Shown here in pieces: positions 14,152 to 21,927 of a DNA stretch of 26,384 nt. Origin of the DNA: JBBIPZ01 sp037442505 [NCBI: Deltaproteobacteria bacterium] (GTDB lineage: Bacteria > CALINM01). The stretch covers positions 1-26,384 of the forward strand of contig JBBIPZ010000027.1 in NCBI GenBank assembly GCA_037442505.1, in the 5' to 3' direction. The position numbers and the translations under genes are program-made. Every line of letters begins with the position of its first letter. The first letter of the stretch is position 1. Below the pieces are notes generated by a model. It was not told where the DNA came from, made no database searches, and saw only the letters and a list, made by a program, of their open reading frames with translations.

Positions 14152-14897
14152 CGTTAGAAAAGTTAGTATCAAAAATCCTTTCTGTATCCGATAGAAAGCA
14201 GAGGGCGTTTCTGCTAATAGAACAGTTACTGTCATTTTCGATAGAAAACCTTACAGAAATACTTGAAGACATTGTTAATTTTAGTTTAAGAGATGATTAC
14301 ACATCAAAAGAATTACTCTTTTCACTGACGGACATTTTAGAAAATATTCATACTTTTGACGATGATAGCGATATCAATAATTTGAAAAAAACAATTTCTG
14401 CTTTAACCACCTCAAATAGGACCTTAAGATTTTTTATAACTCCACCACAACCGCACCGTTTTTTAAAAAAAACTGAACAACAAACAACGGATATTTTGCT
14501 TGATTATCTGCCGCTCGGGGTAAAAAGAAGTTTTGCAAAAAAAATCGATAAAAATCTTTTAAAAAGAATGCTATTAGACAAAGACCCATTAGTAGTCAAA
14601 TATCTCCTGAATAACCCTTTGATAACAGAGAAGGATGTTCTTAAGATAGTATCAAGCCGTCCTAACACGGCAAGTGTAATAAAGGTAGTTTTTGCTTCAG
14701 ACAGGTGGGTAAAAAGCTATCATATAAAAGAGGCAATAATTAAAAACCCATACTCTCCTTTTAGAATCGCACTAACGCTTTTATTTTCTATGAACAAAAA
14801 AGAGTTAAAACAGATTGAAACAGACGCCACACTCCACCCGGAAATCAGAATCGAGGCAGAAAGAATGCAAAAGCTAAGAGGATATTCGAGTTATTAA
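14139..14897 (+). CDS. Hypothetical helical-repeat protein
   Basis: A 252-aa soluble, helix-rich protein without signal peptide. The central stretch [19 protein letters not shown] followed by [10 protein letters not shown] resembles conserved proteins of unknown function in delta-proteobacteria-like genomes, with DUF2336/HEAT-type helical repeats, but I cannot name the family. It overlaps the Fe-S protein gene by 13 nt, so it belongs to the mltD-moeA operon. It converges with tatA, the two stop codons overlapping in 14894-14897, and no terminator hairpin is apparent between them. Confidence 0.6.
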
Positions 14898-15100
14898 TCC
14901 TTGTTTTCTTTTTTTTCGTTTTTTTCTTCTGATTTTTCTTTTGGTGTAACGTCAATGGCATCAGGTTCATTTACAGACCTTTTAAAATTTTTAATAGCTT
15001 TGCCTATTCCAGATCCTAACTCAGGTAACTTTCCCACCCCAAAAACCAAAACTACTATTACAAGAATTACTATAAGTTCAGGAAACCCAAGTCCAAACAT
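14894..15100 (-). CDS. tatA: Sec-independent protein translocase TatA/TatE subunit
   Basis: TatA forms the pore of the twin-arginine system that exports folded, often cofactor-bearing proteins. The 68-aa protein has the family layout: a short N-terminus, one membrane helix (about 7-20), the FG motif (F20-G21), an amphipathic helix (about 25-43, [18 protein letters not shown]) and a charged, Lys/Glu-rich tail. The open frame runs further upstream to 15247, but that part is the tRNA-Sec gene; the ATG at 15100 follows a strong AAGGAGG. It sits 20 nt downstream of tRNA-Sec and has no promoter of its own that I can see. No tatC is in the window. Confidence 0.95.
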
Positions 15101-15120
15101 AACTCCTCCTTTTTGAGATA

Positions 15121-15210
15121 CGGAAGTGCATGGGAATCGAACCCACCTTCCCCTCGCGAGGAACATCGGATTTGAAGTCCGTGGAGCCCACCAGGAGCCC
15201 TTGCACTTCC
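15121..15210 (-). tRNA. selC: tRNA-Sec, anticodon UCA
   Basis: The selenocysteine tRNA that reads UGA with SelB. The 90-nt gene has the diagnostic 8-bp acceptor stem (GGAAGTGC with GCACTTCC), discriminator G, anticodon TCA (15175-15173) in loop CTTCAAA, a long variable arm (TTCCTC, GCGA tetraloop, GGGGAA) and a T arm with loop TTCGATT. CCA is not encoded. In my hand fold the D stem (GGGCTC with GGCTCC) has one C-C mismatch and the anticodon stem closes with an A-A pair, so both arms are slightly weak. The promoter at 15219-15247 places the start at its first base. It shows the organism makes selenoproteins. Confidence 0.93.
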
Positions 15211-15218
15211 AGCTAAAT

Positions 15219-15247
15219 ATTTTAAAGTAACCGTTGTATATAGTCAA
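15219..15247 (-). promoter_or_regulatory. Sigma70 promoter of the tRNA-Sec / tatA unit
   Basis: Minus-strand TTGACT (15247-15242), exactly 17 bp, TAAAAT (15224-15219). The -10 box ends 8 nt before the first base of the mature tRNA, so transcription would start at the tRNA 5' end and 5' trimming by RNase P may be minimal. Confidence 0.7.
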
Positions 15248-15292: not shown

Positions 15293-15742
15293 TTATGGTA
15301 ATACTGTAACAGTTACAATGTCTGAGTAAGTTCCGACTGATACATTTTGTAAAGATGGAACTCTGCCATAAAGAGTAACAACACGAGGTCTATTTCTTCT
15401 AACTCTTAAAGTGACAGTGCTACTACCTCCACTCCCATCTCCCCAAATGGTTGTTCTACTAACATTGGTAAAAATATTATATGCAAGCATATCAGCAAAA
15501 TACGTGTGTTTCATATAGCGGTTGGCATAAGTACTACTATGCAATCCTCTGTCAAGTTGAATCGTAACATTCATATTTATGCTACAGAAAATAGTAACCC
15601 TTCCCAATCCATCAGTTGGTAGTGTATTTCTAACATCATAAACGCCAAAATTGATATTAGAAATATTTGTAATATTACAGACCTGAGCCTGTACAACATT
15701 ATTAAATGCAAAAAAAATCATTAAAAACAAAATCTTTTTCAT
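15293..15742 (-). CDS. Spore coat U domain subunit without donor strand (likely pilus tip)
   Basis: A secreted 149-aa protein of the spore coat U (SCPU) fold used by archaic chaperone-usher pili. It has a signal peptide (1-19, ending VVQA) and the family pattern: C22, NFGVYD (31-36), C53, a glycine-rich WGDGSGG turn and the C-terminal strand GTYSDIVTVTVLP. The mature chain begins only two residues before C22, so it lacks the N-terminal extension that donates a strand to the next subunit; the other two pilins have about 14-16 residues there. That fits a tip subunit. It is the last gene of the operon, 9 nt after the usher. Archaic pili usually have a two-domain tip adhesin, so this one is minimal. 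Confidence 0.85.
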   Translation of the reverse strand: MKKILFLMIFFAFNNVVQAQVCNITNISNINFGVYDVRNTLPTDGLGRVTIFCSINMNVTIQLDRGLHSSTYANRYMKHTYFADMLAYNIFTNVSRTTIWGDGSGGSSTVTLRVRRNRPRVVTLYGRVPSLQNVSVGTYSDIVTVTVLP

Positions 15743-15751
15743 ACTAATATT

Positions 15752-18679
15752 TTACCATTCTTCTTCAGAAATTATATAAATTTCAACCCATCTATTTTTC
15801 TTTCTACAAGACTCATTCAGCTCTTCGCACACAAGATAGCCTTTACCTAATCCAACAGTGGTTAAAATTTTATCTTTTCTCACCCCAAGTTTTATCATTT
15901 CATCTGCAACGTATTTTACGCGTTTTTCACTTAAATTTTTGTTATATTTTTTTGAACCCAACTGATCACAGTGACCGAAAAGTTCTATAAATGTTAATTC
16001 TTTATCTTTAACCCGGGAAGCCATTTCTTTTATTATATTATAATACCTTTTTGAAGCTAATTTTGTACTGTTAAACTTGAAGAATATCTTACCTATTGAT
16101 TTTTTTCTCCCATAAAAATCCTGAAAAAGCCTTTTTTCTGTCTTATATTCTTTCTTTTCAAAGAATTCCTCTTTTGTTTCGGTATTATAGACTGGTTTCT
16201 CTTTTTTTTCATTTTTTGTATTATTTTCTATTTTTATTGGTTTAACTTCTGGAGCACTTTTTATGACTTTTTCCTGTAGAATAAGTTCTATGTTCCCGAC
16301 ATCAATTATAAACCCCTCTTTATTAGGCAATAAAATTTCAAACTCAATAGTTTTATCCTTATAAAATACTGAACTTTTATACTTGCCGGGTGCAATATTT
16401 TCAATATAAAACTCCCCTTTTTTGCCTGTGGGGATTTTTATAACATTTTCCTTATCTTCTGTTGAGAATCTTATGCAGCCTGATTTTTCTTTTTTTGTTT
16501 CCTTAGGCTTTTGAATGGTTATATCGTAATATTCGAGGGGCATTTTCTCTTTATCAATTACACCAATTAACTTACCCGTATATCTGTATACCCTATAAAC
16601 GGGAAATTCCAGACAAAAACCACTTTTGTACCATGGCGAAACGGCAAACTCCTTCTTTAATATATCGTACTCGAAGGGTATATCTTTATCGTTCAAAGAT
16701 AAAATATTGTCATAATATGAGTTTAAGTCGGGTACAAATAGATATCCTTTTTTGTTAGTTTTGCCAGTATACTGACCATTTATATTAATTTTTACATTTT
16801 CTAAGTCTGATGTCTTTATAAGGGCAAAACTGTCGTTGATAGGTCTTGTAAAGCCTATCGTATCAGAAACGTATGCAACTGCGCCCGCATAACTAAGTCT
16901 ATACATTTCGAAGGTCTTTTCTGAACTATTTTTTAATGATACATCCAGTTCTGAAACTCCAAATTTTGTTCTATACTGCAGATATGGATTTATTGAGTTG
17001 TAAGTGTTATTAGTTTTTTCTCTTTCTAAATCAATCCTGTATCCGTAGCCTTCTCCAATCGGAGAAACCTTTGATAGCTGCAATACTTCTGCAGTTCTAC
17101 CCTCAGTATTTTCATACCTTGCAGATAATGTGTAATCCTTTTTCGGATAAATACTTAAACCCAGAAAGAACTCTGTAGAATTATTGTTTTCGTATTTTCT
17201 TGATAAGTTTGCATATATACTTGCATTTCCTTTTATTGATTTTGAATAGCCAAGATTGAGAATGTTTTTTTCGGAAGACTGATATTTATTATGTGAAAAA
17301 TCTATGCTAAAGTTGCCAACTTGTTCAACAAAGTAAGATATTCCAGCTGAGAAACTTTTTTTAATTTGATCGTTAACAAGCTGATATGAATTGTAATAAT
17401 CATCAGATGAGGCAACCCCAGAAGTTCTAAATGTAAAGTTTTTAAACTGGTAGTTATAAGAGGAGAGCATCGCGAATCCATAAAGACTATCTTTTTTACT
17501 AATAGATGGTAAAAGGCTTAAAATACCGTATTTATTTAGTAAAATGATAGCTTCACCGCTTAAATTATAAAAACTACTTGCAGGAACACCTTCAAACCTG
17601 CCACCAATATTTAAAAATTCATTGTAGCCATACCTTTCAAAACCAAGAAAACCAATATTTGTATAGTTGTTGCTATCTATAGAGTAGTTTTTCCTTAAAA
17701 AACCTATGGAATAGTTAAACTCTCTAACACCTTGCCTTAACATAACATCAGCAAAATAAAAGGGATAGCGATATGTCTCCAATCTACCATAAGGGTCTTT
17801 TATTACAATCTGAACATCTTTTCTTCCCCCATAATAGTATAAATCAGATAAGTTGACGCCACCAGGTGGAATGATTTCTTTTTTTATCAAGGTGTTGTCA
17901 AGATATATTTCCAGTTCAGAACGAAAAGTTGCAAAGGTGTTAATATCAAAAGTAGGTTTGTAAATATAGTAGGGGTCGATATCAAAATTTTTGTAAAAGC
18001 TTATACCAATCATTGGATTGCCAGCCGTAAGAGGTCCTGAAGGGGTTATAAAATCTCCAACAACCAATCTATTTAAACTTTTTCTGTTGTCATAAACTGC
18101 ATAGCTGTTTAATCTTGTGTATTTGTTGCTATCTTCGTTATAAAAGCCTTCCGTTATAAAGCTCCAATCAGTTAATCTGATTCCTAACTCATGATTTAAA
18201 TAAAAGTCGTTACTGTTTTCAATACTGGTATAATCAAGCCTGTAGTTGAGGAAAACGCTATTCTGTGAAGGAACAATAACATTTTCTCTTTTTTTAGGGT
18301 ATAAACTTATTGTAGTTTCAGGTAAATATTGTGGTGGTATGGTGATTTCCAGTTCGGCTCTTTCTTCATTCAATTTAAATTCCAACTCCTTCCAGCTGTT
18401 TAAAAGTAAGTATTCTTTGTCTTTTATTTTTGTTCTATTTCCGACTATTTCTTTCAAACCAAAGCTTAACAGATCATCGATAGGTAAAAATATTTTATTT
18501 CCATCAATAAAAGCAAAAACATCACCTTTTTTTTCACCATTTAAGACAATGGAGAAAACAATTTCGTTACCCTTAGGCTCAGCTATCGAAAGTCTTGGTA
18601 AGAAAAGGGTTAACAAAAGGAAACATAATATCAGTTTAAGGATTGCAGGATTCTTTACTAATATCAATTTTATCATCAA
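15752..18679 (-). CDS. Fimbrial outer-membrane usher with C-terminal OmpA-like domain
   Basis: The 975-aa protein is predicted to form the outer-membrane pore that takes subunits from the chaperone and assembles the pilus. A signal peptide (about 1-33) precedes an N-terminal chaperone-binding domain (about 40-150) and the beta-barrel/plug region (about 150-640, e.g. RLVVGDF and NPMIGISFYKN). C-terminal sandwich domains follow (about 640-800, including GEFYIENIAPGKY), then a charged linker (about 800-862). The last 112 residues are OmpA-like: KIFFKFNST (864), FGHCDQLGS, NLSEKR, KKNRWVEI. The peptidoglycan-binding residues D905 and R920 are conserved at the family's 15-residue spacing. The extra domain is unusual for ushers. 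The start overlaps the chaperone gene by 44 nt. Confidence 0.88.
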   Translation of the reverse strand: MMIKLILVKNPAILKLILCFLLLTLFLPRLSIAEPKGNEIVFSIVLNGEKKGDVFAFIDGNKIFLPIDDLLSFGLKEIVGNRTKIKDKEYLLLNSWKELEFKLNEERAELEITIPPQYLPETTISLYPKKRENVIVPSQNSVFLNYRLDYTSIENSNDFYLNHELGIRLTDWSFITEGFYNEDSNKYTRLNSYAVYDNRKSLNRLVVGDFITPSGPLTAGNPMIGISFYKNFDIDPYYIYKPTFDINTFATFRSELEIYLDNTLIKKEIIPPGGVNLSDLYYYGGRKDVQIVIKDPYGRLETYRYPFYFADVMLRQGVREFNYSIGFLRKNYSIDSNNYTNIGFLGFERYGYNEFLNIGGRFEGVPASSFYNLSGEAIILLNKYGILSLLPSISKKDSLYGFAMLSSYNYQFKNFTFRTSGVASSDDYYNSYQLVNDQIKKSFSAGISYFVEQVGNFSIDFSHNKYQSSEKNILNLGYSKSIKGNASIYANLSRKYENNNSTEFFLGLSIYPKKDYTLSARYENTEGRTAEVLQLSKVSPIGEGYGYRIDLEREKTNNTYNSINPYLQYRTKFGVSELDVSLKNSSEKTFEMYRLSYAGAVAYVSDTIGFTRPINDSFALIKTSDLENVKININGQYTGKTNKKGYLFVPDLNSYYDNILSLNDKDIPFEYDILKKEFAVSPWYKSGFCLEFPVYRVYRYTGKLIGVIDKEKMPLEYYDITIQKPKETKKEKSGCIRFSTEDKENVIKIPTGKKGEFYIENIAPGKYKSSVFYKDKTIEFEILLPNKEGFIIDVGNIELILQEKVIKSAPEVKPIKIENNTKNEKKEKPVYNTETKEEFFEKKEYKTEKRLFQDFYGRKKSIGKIFFKFNSTKLASKRYYNIIKEMASRVKDKELTFIELFGHCDQLGSKKYNKNLSEKRVKYVADEMIKLGVRKDKILTTVGLGKGYLVCEELNESCRKKNRWVEIYIISEEEW

Positions 18680-19379
18680 ATGTAAACCCGTTGGAAACCA
18701 ACTGGAAAAGAATTTTATCTATTTTATTACACTCCTCAAGCTTTCCTGAAAACAACCTTTTTGCTCCACTTAAAACATACCAGCCTTTGATGTCTTTAGA
18801 AAACACCTCCTTTTCACCCGCATACCCTTTTATCCTTATGTAATGAACTTGTAAATGATGGTTAGATTTATTTTCCATTTGTAGATGGAAAATGCTATTT
18901 GACACCATCTTTTTTGTTATCTCCCATTTTGTATCTTCTCTTAAGGGTTTCACAAAAATAGGGATACCAAATTTTAGTGCAATCTGGAGAGCAACACCTT
19001 CTTTATTTTGTTGAGAAGGTATCTCTTCTACAAAAAGACGATAAGTCTTTTCTTTTATTGGTGTAAGTGCTTTTAAACCAATTCGGATAAGTCTTTCTTT
19101 ACCGGGAGCTAAGGTAAAAACTTTGGGGAAAAAGATTATATCATCAGAATCAATATATACATCTTTGCCATTCTCGTCTTGTGTCCATTCCATAGCTTTT
19201 ACCTGAAAGTTAATTGGAACCTTATCTTCATTAATTACAGTGATCGACGTGCTTTTGTCCTGAGCAGACATCTCGATTCTAATAGGGCTTATACGCCATT
19301 CTCCTGCATTAGTTGTATTTACTGATATAAGCGAGATAAGACTAAAAAGTAGAAACAGAGATAGAAAATGGCCACGCAT
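18636..19379 (-). CDS. PapD-type periplasmic fimbrial chaperone
   Basis: Predicted to fold and cap pilus subunits in the periplasm before delivery to the usher. The product is 247 aa from the ATG at 19379, chosen because GAGGA lies 9 nt upstream and the protein then begins with a good signal peptide (MRGHFLSLFLLF, cleavage near TTNAG); an in-frame ATG eight codons earlier lacks this. Two immunoglobulin-like domains are suggested: domain 1 with WRISPIRIEM, INFQVKAMEWTQ, LAPGKERLIRIGL and the PapD-signature-like YRLFVEEIP; domain 2 from about 150. It overlaps the upstream MshEN-fusion gene by 38 nt and the downstream usher by 44 nt, indicating tight translational coupling. Confidence 0.9.
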   Translation of the reverse strand: MRGHFLSLFLLFSLISLISVNTTNAGEWRISPIRIEMSAQDKSTSITVINEDKVPINFQVKAMEWTQDENGKDVYIDSDDIIFFPKVFTLAPGKERLIRIGLKALTPIKEKTYRLFVEEIPSQQNKEGVALQIALKFGIPIFVKPLREDTKWEITKKMVSNSIFHLQMENKSNHHLQVHYIRIKGYAGEKEVFSKDIKGWYVLSGAKRLFSGKLEECNKIDKILFQLVSNGFTFDDKIDISKESCNP

Positions 19380-20433
19380 AAGTGCCGTTCCTCGCGTTAT
19401 CATTTAGTTTTAATCTATATGAAAGGTCAAACTTCATAGTTCTAACAGGAGATTTTATTAAAACCATACCGCCATTAGGTCCAAGCTTAACAGGTTCACC
19501 AAAACCAAACACTTCAACCTCTTCTATTAATCCATCACTAAATCCTTCAAAAACAACAAAAATCGCATTTGTATTGGTTTTTAGTTCAATGCTTGTGGCA
19601 TTTTTAATCTCTTTGGTTTTTGTGGCAATATCCCTCTCTGATATAACTATTTCTCCAATCTGTTTGGTTAAATTTAGTTTTGCGTAACTTCTTACTTCTG
19701 CAACGATTCTTACTCTTCCCTTTGTTATTGTATTGCTTAGTTCCTGGGCTTGCAATTCATTAACAAAAAAACTGGTTGAAAAGGTTATAAGTGTTGACAA
19801 GGCAACAGTAGCCAACTTTTGTTGAAGTGTAAGTCCCTTTTCTATATCTTTTTTCGTTACATATCCAAGTTCAAATAAAATCTCTCCCAGCCTTTTTTCA
19901 GGGTGAATTGTTTGAATTTTAAGTGCCTGATTAAGCTGGTCCCGTGTAATTATACCTAAACTAACTAAAAGCTCACCTAATTTAAGCTTTTTATGAATAG
20001 CCGCTTCTTCCTGTGTTTTCTGGAAGAGTAAAACTGCATCTAACTCTTTTTTGCTGATGAAGCCTTTTTCAACCAGTATCTCACCAATTTTTTTACCTGT
20101 CTTTTGTTGAAATGCCAAAGCTTCTTCTAATTCTTTTTCGGTAATTCTCTTTAGACTTATTAAAAGTTCACCAAGCTTTTTTCTAAGTCCAGTGGCGAAC
20201 TTTAGGGCTTTGTGAGGATTTGAGAGGTCTTCCTGAAAGTGTAGAACTATGCTTAATTCTTCCTTCGAAATAGCACCAAGATCTATTAATAACTCACCGA
20301 TTAGCTTATTTGTAGTTTTCTGTTCTTCAAGGGCTTTTTCAACATCCTCTTTTTTTACAAAACCGCCCGACAGGAGTAAATCTCCTAAAAGCCTTTTTTT
20401 CAATTTGCAAAAAAGATTACATTTTTCACTCAT
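19342..20433 (-). CDS. Triple MshEN domains fused through a membrane segment to a pilin-like domain
   Basis: A 363-aa protein of unusual build. Residues 14-204 hold six copies of a motif like LGELL-x4-G-xI-x4-L-x3-L-x2-Q. The LG glycines are at 17, 46, 88, 117, 153 and 183, so pairs 1-2, 3-4 and 5-6 have 29-30-residue spacing, as in MshEN cyclic di-GMP domains (two 24-residue motifs, 5-residue spacer). All six end in Q; the RLG arginine is kept only in repeat 6 (K in 3-5), so binding is uncertain. Residues 206-228 are a hydrophobic segment ending like a signal peptide (NELQAQ). Residues 229-363 look like a beta-sandwich and end GTYAWPFSISVSTF, matching the GTY/GSY final strand of the pilins. 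Function is inferred only. Confidence 0.8.
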   Translation of the reverse strand: MSEKCNLFCKLKKRLLGDLLLSGGFVKKEDVEKALEEQKTTNKLIGELLIDLGAISKEELSIVLHFQEDLSNPHKALKFATGLRKKLGELLISLKRITEKELEEALAFQQKTGKKIGEILVEKGFISKKELDAVLLFQKTQEEAAIHKKLKLGELLVSLGIITRDQLNQALKIQTIHPEKRLGEILFELGYVTKKDIEKGLTLQQKLATVALSTLITFSTSFFVNELQAQELSNTITKGRVRIVAEVRSYAKLNLTKQIGEIVISERDIATKTKEIKNATSIELKTNTNAIFVVFEGFSDGLIEEVEVFGFGEPVKLGPNGGMVLIKSPVRTMKFDLSYRLKLNDNARNGTYAWPFSISVSTF

Positions 20434-20458: not shown

Positions 20459-20962
20459 TTATGGTAAAAGTGTTAATGTGACAGTATCGGAGTAACTACC
20501 TATGGATGCATTTTGGTATGAACTATGAAGAGCTGTAGCTGTAATGTTTAAAGTTCTTCTTATGTTAATTATTCTGTTACGTCTTATTATTGTTTCGCTT
20601 TGCGGTGAATAAGTAAAGTTGTAATCAATGTATTCGTTTAATGTTGAATGTTTCATTCTATGCATGCCAGGAGATGCTTCATATAAGCCGTCATCATCAG
20701 TTATAGAATAGCTTAAAGTATCAAAACCAATGCATCTAAAATTGAGAGTAGCGGTGCCTGATATATCTAAACCAGTTCCTGGTGTTAAATTACCCAAATT
20801 AATTGTTGCATTACTTGTTTGAAACCAACAAGTCCAACCTGCTACAACAGCAGCACTTATATTAATAGATGTTGTTTGCGATTTTACATCTTTTGTGATA
20901 CACAAGAGTGAAAAAAGAAAAAAAAGAGAGGGCAATAAATGCCCTCTTTTTTTAGTGTGCAT
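20459..20962 (-). CDS. Spore coat U-type pilus subunit (second pilin)
   Basis: A secreted 167-aa subunit: signal peptide 1-28 (cleavage near VKS-Q), an N-terminal donor-strand-like extension (TTSINISAAVV) before C45, C77 as the likely disulfide partner, the DDDGLYE motif (89-95) shared with the major pilin, and the final strand GSYSDTVTLTLLP. Its ATG is 3 nt after the major-pilin stop (TAATTTATG) and has no Shine-Dalgarno, so translation probably depends on ribosomes arriving from the major pilin. Codons 6-17 coincide with an intrinsic terminator, which should make it a low-copy subunit. Confidence 0.87.
   Translation of the reverse strand: MHTKKRGHLLPSLFFLFSLLCITKDVKSQTTSINISAAVVAGWTCWFQTSNATINLGNLTPGTGLDISGTATLNFRCIGFDTLSYSITDDDGLYEASPGMHRMKHSTLNEYIDYNFTYSPQSETIIRRNRIINIRRTLNITATALHSSYQNASIGSYSDTVTLTLLP
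20911..20947 (-). terminator. Intrinsic terminator inside the second pilin's signal-peptide codons
   Basis: On the minus strand, AGAGGGCA (20947-20940) pairs perfectly with TGCCCTCT (20934-20927) around loop TTTAT, followed by C, eight T, C, six T. It starts 18 nt after the major-pilin stop, the normal place for a gene-end terminator, yet overlaps codons 6-17 of the next gene. On the plus strand the stem is also followed by a run of seven T. Confidence 0.75.
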
Positions 20963-20965
20963 AAA

Positions 20966-21433
20966 TTATGGATTTACTGTAATGGTTACCGTATCAGCAT
21001 AACTCCCTGCTGAGGCATTTTGATAATCCGTTTGTGCAAAGCTCGCAGTTATATTGAGAGTTATTGGGCTTGTTGGACCAGCACCTGTCCCGCTTGTAGG
21101 ATTGTAGCTAAACGTGTAAGGGATATACTCATTTGCCGTTGAATTGAATACGCGGTTTGCATTAGCTCCAGTCTCATACAAACCATCATCATCTGTTACA
21201 GTGTAGTTTGCATTTTTTGTGCACCAGAATATTAATGAGCCCGAACCATTAACAGTACCACCGACACTTGGGTCAAGAGAAACGCTGATGTTTGCAGAAG
21301 ATGTAGTGAACTTACAGGTGCCCACTACTGTCGCATTGATGTTTACAGTTCCAGTATCAGCTGCATAGGTTATTACCGTTGATAGCAAAAACATCAGAGA
21401 AAACATTGATACACCCAACAAAAATCTTCTCAT
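20966..21433 (-). CDS. Major pilin of the archaic chaperone-usher pilus (spore coat U type)
   Basis: A secreted 155-aa subunit and the first gene of the operon: signal peptide 1-24 (ends ITYA), an alternating donor-strand extension (TGTVNINATVV) before C40, C71 as the likely disulfide partner, DDDGLYE at 81-87, and the C-terminal strand GSYADTVTITVNP. The mature chain is rich in Ser, Thr, Asn and Ala with few charges, as expected for a structural pilin. It has the strongest translation signal of the operon (AAGGAGG just before the ATG) and a near-consensus promoter. A terminator immediately downstream should make its mRNA the most abundant. Confidence 0.9.
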   Translation of the reverse strand: MRRFLLGVSMFSLMFLLSTVITYAADTGTVNINATVVGTCKFTTSSANISVSLDPSVGGTVNGSGSLIFWCTKNANYTVTDDDGLYETGANANRVFNSTANEYIPYTFSYNPTSGTGAGPTSPITLNITASFAQTDYQNASAGSYADTVTITVNP

Positions 21434-21489: not shown

Positions 21490-21927
21490 TAAATATGCAA
21501 TTAAAATGCCAAAAAACAATAACGATAAATTTTGTTTTAAATTCAAAGCACAACTTTATTTTACTTTATGAATCTTGCTATAACTACTATTTTTTTATTA
21601 CACCTTTTTGCTTAAATGTGCCAGCTAAATGACATTTTTTACGCCATTTAACTGTATGCCTAATAGCGCTGGCTGGTTAAGTTAGCGATGAACAATGCAA
21701 CCTAACTGTGGGGTGAAAAGTGAAATCATTAATTAACTATATGATGTGTTGTTCATTAATAGATAAACTTGATGATACCTTGATAATCAACGTGTGTTAA
21801 CTTAGAGACATTCTTTGCCCTAATGAAAAAAGTTAATTTTGTGTCTTAATAGCCCATTTTTATTTTTTAGCTCTTTAAGTGGTCATTCTGAGACGTCAGG
21901 CGAAGAATTTTCCCGCCATTAATATGC
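21490..21927. other. Gene-free spacer between rtcB and the pilus operon
   Basis: About 440 bp without a credible reading frame or RNA gene. It holds an imperfect inverted repeat (AGCTAAATG near 21624 with CATTTAACT near 21645) and the CATTCTG element at 21882-21908. No conventional rtcB terminator is evident. The mid-part (about 21600-21800) is less AT-extreme than its surroundings and could hide a decayed gene or small RNA, but nothing supports this directly. Confidence 0.5.
21882..21908. repeat. CATTCTGAG / CGAAGAAT dispersed element, copy 1
   Basis: It starts with GTCATTCTGAG and ends with GCGAAGAAT; ATTCT and AGAAT can pair as a small hairpin, with CTGA-GACG-TCAG nested inside. A related copy is at 25543-25567. 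It lies 20 nt beyond the rtcB stop. Confidence 0.5.

What the first reader, a model, noticed from the sequence alone, without database searches (positions are those of the whole stretch)
19342..20433. Pilus operon gene fusing three MshEN domains to a membrane segment and a pilin-like domain
Seen: six LGELL...Q motifs in three pairs with 29-30-residue spacing, then a hydrophobic segment (206-228), then about 135 residues ending in the same GTY-type final strand as the operon's three pilins. Known: MshEN domains (two 24-residue motifs, 5-residue spacer) bind cyclic di-GMP, classically in type II secretion and type IV pilus ATPases. Inference: a cytoplasmic c-di-GMP sensor coupled through the inner membrane to the subunit pool or usher of a chaperone-usher pilus, which normally has no cytoplasmic component. 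I know of no described system with this layout.
Basis: partly seen in the sequence, partly recalled or inferred. Interest (0 to 1): 0.85.

Follow-up and report, generated by a model that had tools for sequence, protein, structure and literature searches.

The report
Cyclic-di-GMP receptor fused to pilin-like protein
A gene inside a bacterial pilus operon joins three predicted sensors for the signal molecule cyclic di-GMP, which would sit inside the cell, to an exported pilin-like part, and the same layout recurs in related bacteria, so a cell may steer this kind of pilus directly by its internal signal level.

Summary
Window 19342-20433 (-) encodes 363 aa: three tandem MshEN_N-type c-di-GMP motif pairs (NCBIfam NF053729, three stretches, E=1.8e-45), a hydrophobic segment and about 134 beta-rich residues. 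It lies inside a pilin-pilin-THIS-chaperone-usher-pilin operon. It is not a local fusion: 14 fused proteins (window included) and 16 stand-alone relatives of the C-terminal part were found, 27 of these 30 in 395 genomes of one phylum (Nitrospirota by record title). The C-part co-occurs with ushers (18 of 27 genomes; about 2 expected). In six of 14 loci the fused gene lies in a chaperone-usher cluster. Elsewhere it or its stand-alone form sits beside PilZ, GGDEF, or separate MshEN and HD-domain genes. The PF05157 (MshEN_C) part is absent. The 'membrane segment' resembles a signal peptide placed inside the protein, with a possible cleavage site, so tether and cleaved precursor are both open. The C-part matches no known family; its kinship to pilins is weak, though it aligns end to end. 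Seven of 11 fused-gene genomes in the survey have no detectable usher, so its role is not only pilus-bound. c-di-GMP binding and control of the pilus are inferred, not shown.

The parts
19342..20433 (-). MshEN_N x3 - hydrophobic segment - pilin-like C-domain gene, 363 aa
19822..20391 (-). three MshEN_N-type c-di-GMP motif pairs (residues 15-204)
   Evidence: NF053729, 3 stretches, 1.8e-45; motif positions and shuffles
19747..19815 (-). internal hydrophobic, signal-peptide-like segment (residues 207-229), possible signal peptidase I site after residue 229
   Evidence: no start codon with a ribosome-binding-site-like stretch in the region searched around it in this or the other 13 fused genes
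19345..19746 (-). C-terminal beta-rich domain (residues 230-363), same family as 16 stand-alone proteins
18636..19403 (-). PapD-type periplasmic chaperone, overlaps the fused gene by 62 nt as called
   Evidence: PF00345, 2.7e-19; junctions
15752..18679 (-). outer-membrane usher with an extra C-terminal OmpA domain
   Evidence: PF00577 3.4e-31; PF00691 7.1e-14
20459..20962 (-). SCPU-family pilin
   Evidence: PF05229, 2.9e-7
20966..21433 (-). SCPU-family pilin, first gene of the operon
   Evidence: PF05229, 2.1e-11
15293..15742 (-). SCPU-family pilin, last gene of the operon
   Evidence: PF05229, 5.8e-29
21497..21511 (-). sigma-54 (-24/-12)-like site 63 nt upstream of the first pilin gene
   Evidence: 1 match in the window, 0.13 expected, 13 of 100 shuffles had one; consensus recalled

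Best explanation
This is a c-di-GMP-responsive accessory protein of an SCPU-type chaperone-usher pilus. Three tandem MshEN_N units stay in the cytoplasm and bind c-di-GMP. A single hydrophobic segment places the pilin-like C-domain in the periplasm, where its stand-alone relatives appear to be sent by ordinary signal peptides. Ligand binding changes how, or how much of, the pilin-like domain is offered to the chaperone (whose gene overlaps this one) and to the usher, so that pilus assembly follows intracellular c-di-GMP after translation, not only through transcription. Shown: the architecture, its conservation, the operon context and the sequence of the ligand motifs. Inferred: ligand binding, N-in/C-out topology, and action on assembly. 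Undecided: whether the C-domain stays tethered (inside-out signalling) or is cut free by signal peptidase (gated release).
For: Three NF053729 units in the window protein and in 8 of 8 fused relatives scanned, of 13. Of the six ligand-contacting positions per half-motif, 32 of 36 fit the extended consensus with R, K or L first; PMC11731258 (passages read) reports nanomolar binding by a domain with K and L at that position. The low-confidence full-length model (pLDDT 49.6) matches c-di-GMP-bound MshE and PilF over 54-58 columns at probability 1.00, although with non-significant E-values of 0.08 and above. 14 fused proteins; fused and stand-alone labels need only 2 changes on the tree. In the window clade the fused gene overlaps the chaperone gene by 62, 38, 38 and 56 nt as called (WIN, L093, L094, L123) and the chaperone overlaps the usher by 41-44 nt. 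Usher co-occurrence 18 of 27 against about 2 expected, P=2.2e-17. PilZ-like gene beside 4 of 14 fused genes, with a GGDEF gene within 4.4 kb in three of those loci; a HAMP-GAF-GGDEF gene 1.6 kb from the L130 fused gene. In L141 and L145 the stand-alone C-part is followed by a separate MshEN gene.
Against: No biochemical evidence. Seven of the 11 fused-gene genomes within the 395 have no detectable usher and no PapD chaperone, and an eighth (G016) has them on another contig than the fused gene, so the protein need not always serve a chaperone-usher pilus; incomplete MAGs may explain some. The gene overlap with the chaperone is not general: gaps of 156 and 32 nt in L129 and L130. The C-domain matches no Pfam family convincingly, lacks the two invariant cysteines of the SCPU alignment, and its profile match to SCPU is weak (local E 0.0065, global 6.4e-4, other settings down to 0.022, probability 2-11%; 6.9%). 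Four of 36 key motif positions in the window protein deviate, and half-motif 3 lacks the turn glycine.
Confidence: 0.5

Rival explanations
1. Gated or coupled export: the hydrophobic segment is a true internal signal peptide. Signal peptidase I cuts after about residue 229, the C-domain is released to the periplasm as a minor pilin, and the MshEN part acts before cutting, holding or releasing the precursor according to c-di-GMP.
For: An [AVLIT]-x-[AS] site, a permissive pattern, can be placed by eye after the hydrophobic core in 14 of 14 fused proteins. A home-made site score agrees with that place in 9 of 14 and beats internal hydrophobic segments of other proteins (median 2.0 against 0.27, n=14 and 85, P=0.002). 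By eye the uncharged stretch is short and often ends in Pro, as in signal peptides. No start codon with a ribosome-binding-site-like stretch lies in the 42 codons searched around the segment in 14 of 14 genes, so the C-domain has no obvious separate translation. The stand-alone relatives carry N-terminal signal-peptide-like segments (by eye; L139 is cut by its contig end).
Against: Scores are lower than those of stand-alone relatives (median 3.9, P=0.036); two proteins score about zero (L124 0.3, L126 -0.3); a quarter of the control segments reach the fused median; the score picked another site than mine in 4 of 14 and differed by one residue in a fifth. An acidic residue lies just before the site in the window clade. 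I know of no precedent for an internal bacterial signal peptide behind a ligand-binding domain (recalled, not searched).
Confidence: 0.3
2. General inside-out signalling protein, not a pilus part: a tethered periplasmic domain whose state is set by cytoplasmic c-di-GMP, used by a pilus in some genomes and by something else in others.
For: Five related fused proteins (L095, L124, L125, L126, L128) have no chaperone or usher in the fetched locus, and four of them (L095, L124, L125, L126) have a PilZ gene within 212 nt. No usher was found in those five genomes.
Against: Fused gene inside the pilus cluster in 6 of 14 loci; stand-alone relatives in usher-bearing genomes in 14 of 16; MAGs may be incomplete.
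Confidence: 0.3
3. The MshEN repeats no longer bind ligand and serve only as an oligomerisation or localisation scaffold for an anchored pilin-like protein.
For: Half-motifs deviate at some positions; the strict RLG...Q motif of the founding paper is met by 0 of 83 complete aligned half-motifs. PMC5013675 (section 12 read) notes MshEN relatives that lost binding through changes at key residues.
Against: 437 of 498 key positions are kept across the 14 proteins; half-motif 5 of the window fits the extended consensus fully; several neighbours belong to c-di-GMP signalling.
Confidence: 0.2
4. Assembly or annotation artefact that joins two genes.
For: None beyond the existence of stand-alone C-domain genes.
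Against: 14 open frames with the same order and no stops inside, the other 13 being 32-64% identical to the window protein in alignment.
Confidence: 0.01

Closest known systems
Triple GSPII/MshEN region of Thermus thermophilus PilF
   Same: Three consecutive MshEN-type units, with K and L in place of the first Arg in the GSPII-B motifs (PMC11731258 passages); sequence hit E=1.5e-15
   Different: PilF is a type IV pilus ATPase and its GSPII domains have C-terminal subdomains; here there is no ATPase, no PF05157 part, and an export-type segment plus a beta domain instead
V. cholerae MshE N-domain (PDB 5htl)
   Same: Paired 24-residue motifs with a 5-residue spacer (PMC5013675); sequence E=1.1e-6
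   Different: Single unit on a type IV pilus ATPase
SCPU-type (archaic-like) chaperone-usher pilus operons
   Same: SCPU pilins, PapD chaperone and usher present
   Different: Extra MshEN-fused gene; the usher carries an OmpA domain. That such operons normally have no cytoplasmic component is recalled
NfrB and EpsG-type MshEN fusions
   Same: MshEN module in a protein other than a secretion or pilus ATPase; NCBIfam matches far below their cut-offs and confined to the MshEN part
   Different: By the models' names the outputs are a glycosyltransferase and a tyrosine kinase, not a periplasmic domain
LapD inside-out c-di-GMP signalling (recalled)
   Same: Cytoplasmic c-di-GMP receptor with a periplasmic output in one chain
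   Different: LapD uses an EAL domain and a PAS-like periplasmic domain (recalled); neither appears among the Pfam hits of the window protein

Membership tests
MshEN c-di-GMP-binding domain (MshEN_N) | two 24-residue motifs with a spacer of about 5 residues | tested here: met
   three pairs, spacers 5, 5, 6; NF053729 over cut-off
MshEN c-di-GMP-binding domain (MshEN_N) | ligand residues (R/K/L)-L-G ... L ... L ... Q | tested here: met
   32 of 36 positions in the window protein; the four departures are I or V for L; half-motif 3 also lacks the turn Gly; the older strict RLG form is not met
MshEN c-di-GMP-binding domain (MshEN_N) | binds c-di-GMP | not testable with these tools
   needs ITC or a similar assay
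Full MshEN domain, Pfam PF05157 | PF05157 match (the MshEN_C part) | tested here: not met
   absent at E<=1 from the window protein; found at 2.9e-16 in neighbour L141:2918-3940 behind the motifs
Type II secretion / type IV pilus ATPase | T2SSE ATPase domain | tested here: not met
   no such match in Pfam at E<=1; the weak PilB match covers only its first 65 positions
Chaperone-usher pilus operon | usher, PapD chaperone and pilins in one gene cluster | tested here: met
   PF00577, PF00345, three PF05229
SCPU pilin (C-domain) | PF05229 match | tested here: not met
   0 of 30 C-domains match at E<=10, with HMMER's filters on
SCPU pilin (C-domain) | invariant cysteine pair | tested here: not met
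   two invariant Cys in the 36-row SCPU alignment; 24 of 30 C-domains have no Cys and 1 of 30 has two or more
Chaperone-usher subunit-like fold (C-domain) | end-to-end profile alignment to pilins, beta-sandwich | tested here: inconclusive
   hhalign global E=6.4e-4 over 131 columns, global controls E 0.53-0.85 over 7-14 columns; local E 0.0065 against 0.051-0.27 for controls; best of 120 shuffles 21.5 against 22.3; single-sequence model pLDDT 61, best Z 7.9 with no row standing out
Secreted protein with cleavable signal peptide | h-region followed by a signal peptidase I site | tested here: inconclusive
   scores between stand-alone signal peptides and internal hydrophobic segments

The most novel reading that the evidence does not exclude
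c-di-GMP gates protein export itself: the MshEN triplet is a cytoplasmic pre-domain in front of an internal signal peptide, and ligand binding decides whether the pilin-like subunit is released by signal peptidase into the periplasm. That would be direct second-messenger control of the supply of a chaperone-usher subunit.
Probability: 0.22. Interest if true: 0.88.

Novelty: new variant of a known kind. Interest (0 to 1): 0.66.

Why it matters
The c-di-GMP control of chaperone-usher pili that I know of (MrkH and type 3 fimbriae, for example) is at transcription; this is recalled. A receptor built into a gene of the assembly operon would make post-translational, inside-out control of such a pilus directly testable. 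It also defines a domain family without a convincing Pfam match that recurs with c-di-GMP genes: fused to MshEN in 14 of 30, and beside a separate MshEN gene in 2 more.

Tried and rejected
Artefact or local fusion: rejected, since 13 further fused homologues exist. SCPU membership of the C-domain: not met. Fold of the C-domain: single-sequence model only (pLDDT 61), because structure prediction by its stated rule does not take loci from the genome search or the fetch from genomes; none were sent. Foldseek's best hits were PliG lysozyme inhibitors (E=2.4e-4, TM-score 0.38) and other beta-rich proteins, 7 at E<=0.001, none of them pilins. In the VIA-align second look fimbrial EcpA (Z 6.7) and BPSL1626 (Z 6.6) are among tied rows, and unrelated families rank above them, up to Z 7.9. 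PDB search with the C-domain profile: nothing below E=0.48. Plasmid tblastn: 3 records, each matching only MshEN-part residues or little beyond (query 84-139, 115-176, 149-226). Genome-contig scan with the protein: 0 relatives; the RtcB scan gave 80 loci (151 found, 80 kept), and tblastn of the operon proteins found no operon in them, only an OmpA-type match in L033. c-di-GMP riboswitch: no Rfam match at gathering score in the window or in 6 of the loci. SCPU search by PF05229 in 10 genomes: 0 of 10, but no control genome rang, and one of the ten (G016) has a usher, so it shows little. Sigma-54-like sites were counted by a simple consensus score with fixed GG and GC (consensus recalled), not a trained model; one fused gene without a neighbouring activator, L128, also scored 8. 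The cleavage-site score was home-made, trained on 56 signal peptides of the same loci whose sites were themselves inferred. Literature: searches listed no paper whose title or abstract start describes an MshEN domain fused to, or controlling, a chaperone-usher component; the listings of 13 (40 of 52), (15 of 2,593; 15 of 23) were partial, the papers listed were not opened apart from two, and papers outside the held library were not searched.

Full report
What is there. The minus-strand cluster 21433-15293 reads SCPU pilin, SCPU pilin, the 363-aa protein of the finding, PapD-type chaperone, usher, SCPU pilin. The gene before it is RtcB; the 80 RtcB relatives kept are up to 75% identical and the nearest are titled mostly Nitrospirota / Thermodesulfovibrionia MAGs, the first row 'Proteobacteria'. 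No genome is held for the window itself, so its own full gene set could not be searched.

The N-terminal part. NF053729, the curated model for the MshE-related c-di-GMP motif, matches three times. The six half-motifs sit at residues 15, 44, 86, 115, 151 and 181. PF05157 does not match at E<=1; in a neighbour gene of locus L141 it covers the stretch after the motifs, so the window protein has three MshEN_N units without MshEN_C. PMC5013675 (abstract and passages, section 12) reports that isolated MshEN_N binds c-di-GMP, somewhat more strongly than the longer domain. The first residues of the window's half-motifs are L, L, K, K, K, R, and none meets the strict RLG...Q form of that paper. PMC11731258 (passages) extends the consensus to R/K/L in that position and reports nanomolar binding by a domain with K and L there. 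By that rule 32 of 36 key positions are kept, and 437 of 498 over the 14 fused proteins (one incomplete half-motif left out). Binding is therefore likely, not shown.

The middle. A hydrophobic stretch beginning at about residue 207 is followed by a possible signal peptidase site after residue 229. I placed such a site by eye in 14 of 14 fused proteins. A home-made site score agrees with my site in 9 of 14, differs by one residue in L126, and picks a different place in L094, L127, L129 and L132; two scores are about zero (L124 0.3, L126 -0.3). The fused group lies above 85 internal hydrophobic segments of other proteins (P=0.002), though 26% of these reach the fused median, and below the 16 stand-alone relatives (P=0.036). 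No start codon with a ribosome-binding-site-like stretch lies in the 42 codons searched around the segment in 14 of 14 genes, and four genes have no start codon there at all. So the C-domain is most likely made, and if exported then exported, as part of the fusion.

The C-terminal part. It belongs to a family with no convincing Pfam match (12 families each hit 1 or 2 of 30 members, best E 0.0093). Thirty members were gathered: the window, G001, G007, and 27 of 395 genomes of the phylum of G002. The phylum group of G001 holds only 3 searchable genomes, 2 with the C-domain. Fourteen members are fused to the MshEN part; sixteen are stand-alone proteins of 151-196 aa with a signal-peptide-like segment near the start (L139 is open at its contig end). 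Of the 13 fused relatives, 8 were scanned with NCBIfam and 8 of 8 show three units; all 14 match an HMM of the N-part built from themselves. Profile comparison with 36 SCPU pilins gave probability 6.9 over 55 columns. A second comparison with 42 gave a collinear alignment over 119-131 columns, local E 0.0065 and global E 6.4e-4 (0.022 with another setting); 0 of 120 column shuffles reached the score, but the best came close, 21.5 against 22.3. Chaperone, usher and OmpA profiles as controls gave global E 0.53-0.85 over 7-14 columns and local E 0.051-0.27. I read this as suggestive of a pilin-like fold, not proof. The single-sequence model is all-beta apart from one short helix.

Context of the family. 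The fused gene lies in a chaperone-usher cluster in 6 of 14 loci, and a usher lies near the stand-alone gene in 9 of 16. In the same 395 genomes ushers occur in 29 (28 over cut-off), and 18 of the 27 C-domain genomes are among them (P=2.2e-17, not corrected for kinship). Against a purely pilus-bound role: 7 of the 11 fused-gene genomes, and 2 of 16 stand-alone ones, have no usher hit, and a PapD search of those nine plus G016 found one only in G016, where usher and chaperone lie on another contig than the fused gene. These are drafts, and completeness is not given. Eleven usher genomes have no C-domain hit.

Links to signalling. Beside fused genes: a PilZ-like gene within 212 nt in 4 of 14 loci (Pfam score above the cut-off in three, just below in one), with a GGDEF gene in three of those loci (1.3-4.4 kb away; HAMP found in two of the three), and a HAMP-GAF-GGDEF gene 1.6 kb from the L130 one. 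A GAF-GGDEF gene lies 10 kb away in the window. Beside stand-alone genes: a sigma-54 activator within 170-402 nt in 10 of 16 loci, one of them a shortened frame; four were checked with Pfam, the rest match an HMM of three of them. Sigma-54-like sites of 8-9 of 11 matches lie within 30 nt of the start in 7 of 16 stand-alone genes, and in 1 of 14 fused (L128). In L141 and L145 a separate DUF6982-MshEN-type gene follows the C-domain gene (DUF6982 scanned in L141 only) and a PAS-GAF-HD gene comes next. The window operon has one sigma-54-like site, TGGCATTTTAATTGC, 63 nt before the first pilin, 0.13 expected in the window; its counterpart in L093 lies 64 nt before.

Origin. On a tree of 30 C-domains the fused and stand-alone labels need 2 changes (10.2 on shuffled labels), so few fusion or fission events explain the family; deep branches are weakly supported. 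The window, L093, L094 and L123 form one fully supported clade, which shares the gene order and the gene overlaps (L094 is cut inside the usher).

How it most likely works. c-di-GMP binds the cytoplasmic repeats, and this changes the presentation or release of the pilin-like domain on the periplasmic side, where the chaperone and the usher act. Whether the chain stays whole is the central open point; the evidence splits. The usher-less clade suggests that the module can serve something other than a chaperone-usher pilus.

Novelty. The parts are known; I found no described system with this layout in the searches named, of which I saw listings only, some of them capped, apart from two papers read in part. 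I rate it a new variant of a known kind, of high interest because one binding assay and one topology test would settle most of it.

Noticed in passing
window 15752-18679 (-): The usher carries a C-terminal OmpA (peptidoglycan-binding type, recalled) domain; by an HMM built from the three, it is found on 3 of 15 ushers, all in the window clade (WIN, L093, L123).
   Followed up: partly
window 21497-21511 (-): Sigma-54 (-24/-12)-like site before the pilus operon, mirrored in L093 at almost the same distance.
   Followed up: partly
L133-L136, L138, L142-L144, L146, L148: Stand-alone C-domain genes lie 170-402 nt from a sigma-54 activator gene; in the fetched fused loci the nearest is 2.0 kb away (L132).
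   Followed up: partly
L141:2329-6911, L145:105-4381: Stand-alone C-domain gene, then a separate MshEN gene, then a PAS-GAF-HD gene: the two halves as neighbouring genes.
   Followed up: yes
L095, L124, L126: A small protein of 122-126 aa with a signal-peptide-like start and no Pfam match (one of three scanned) and a PilZ-like gene lie beside the fused gene on the opposite strand.
   Followed up: partly
L129:11367-11669 (-): A 100-aa protein with one MshEN_N unit lies about 310 nt upstream of the pilus cluster.
   Followed up: no
window 15121-15210 (-): Selenocysteine tRNA gene just downstream of the operon; the N-terminal stretch of the TatA-family ORF 14894-15247 as called runs through this tRNA on the same strand, so its start is probably mis-set.
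   Followed up: partly
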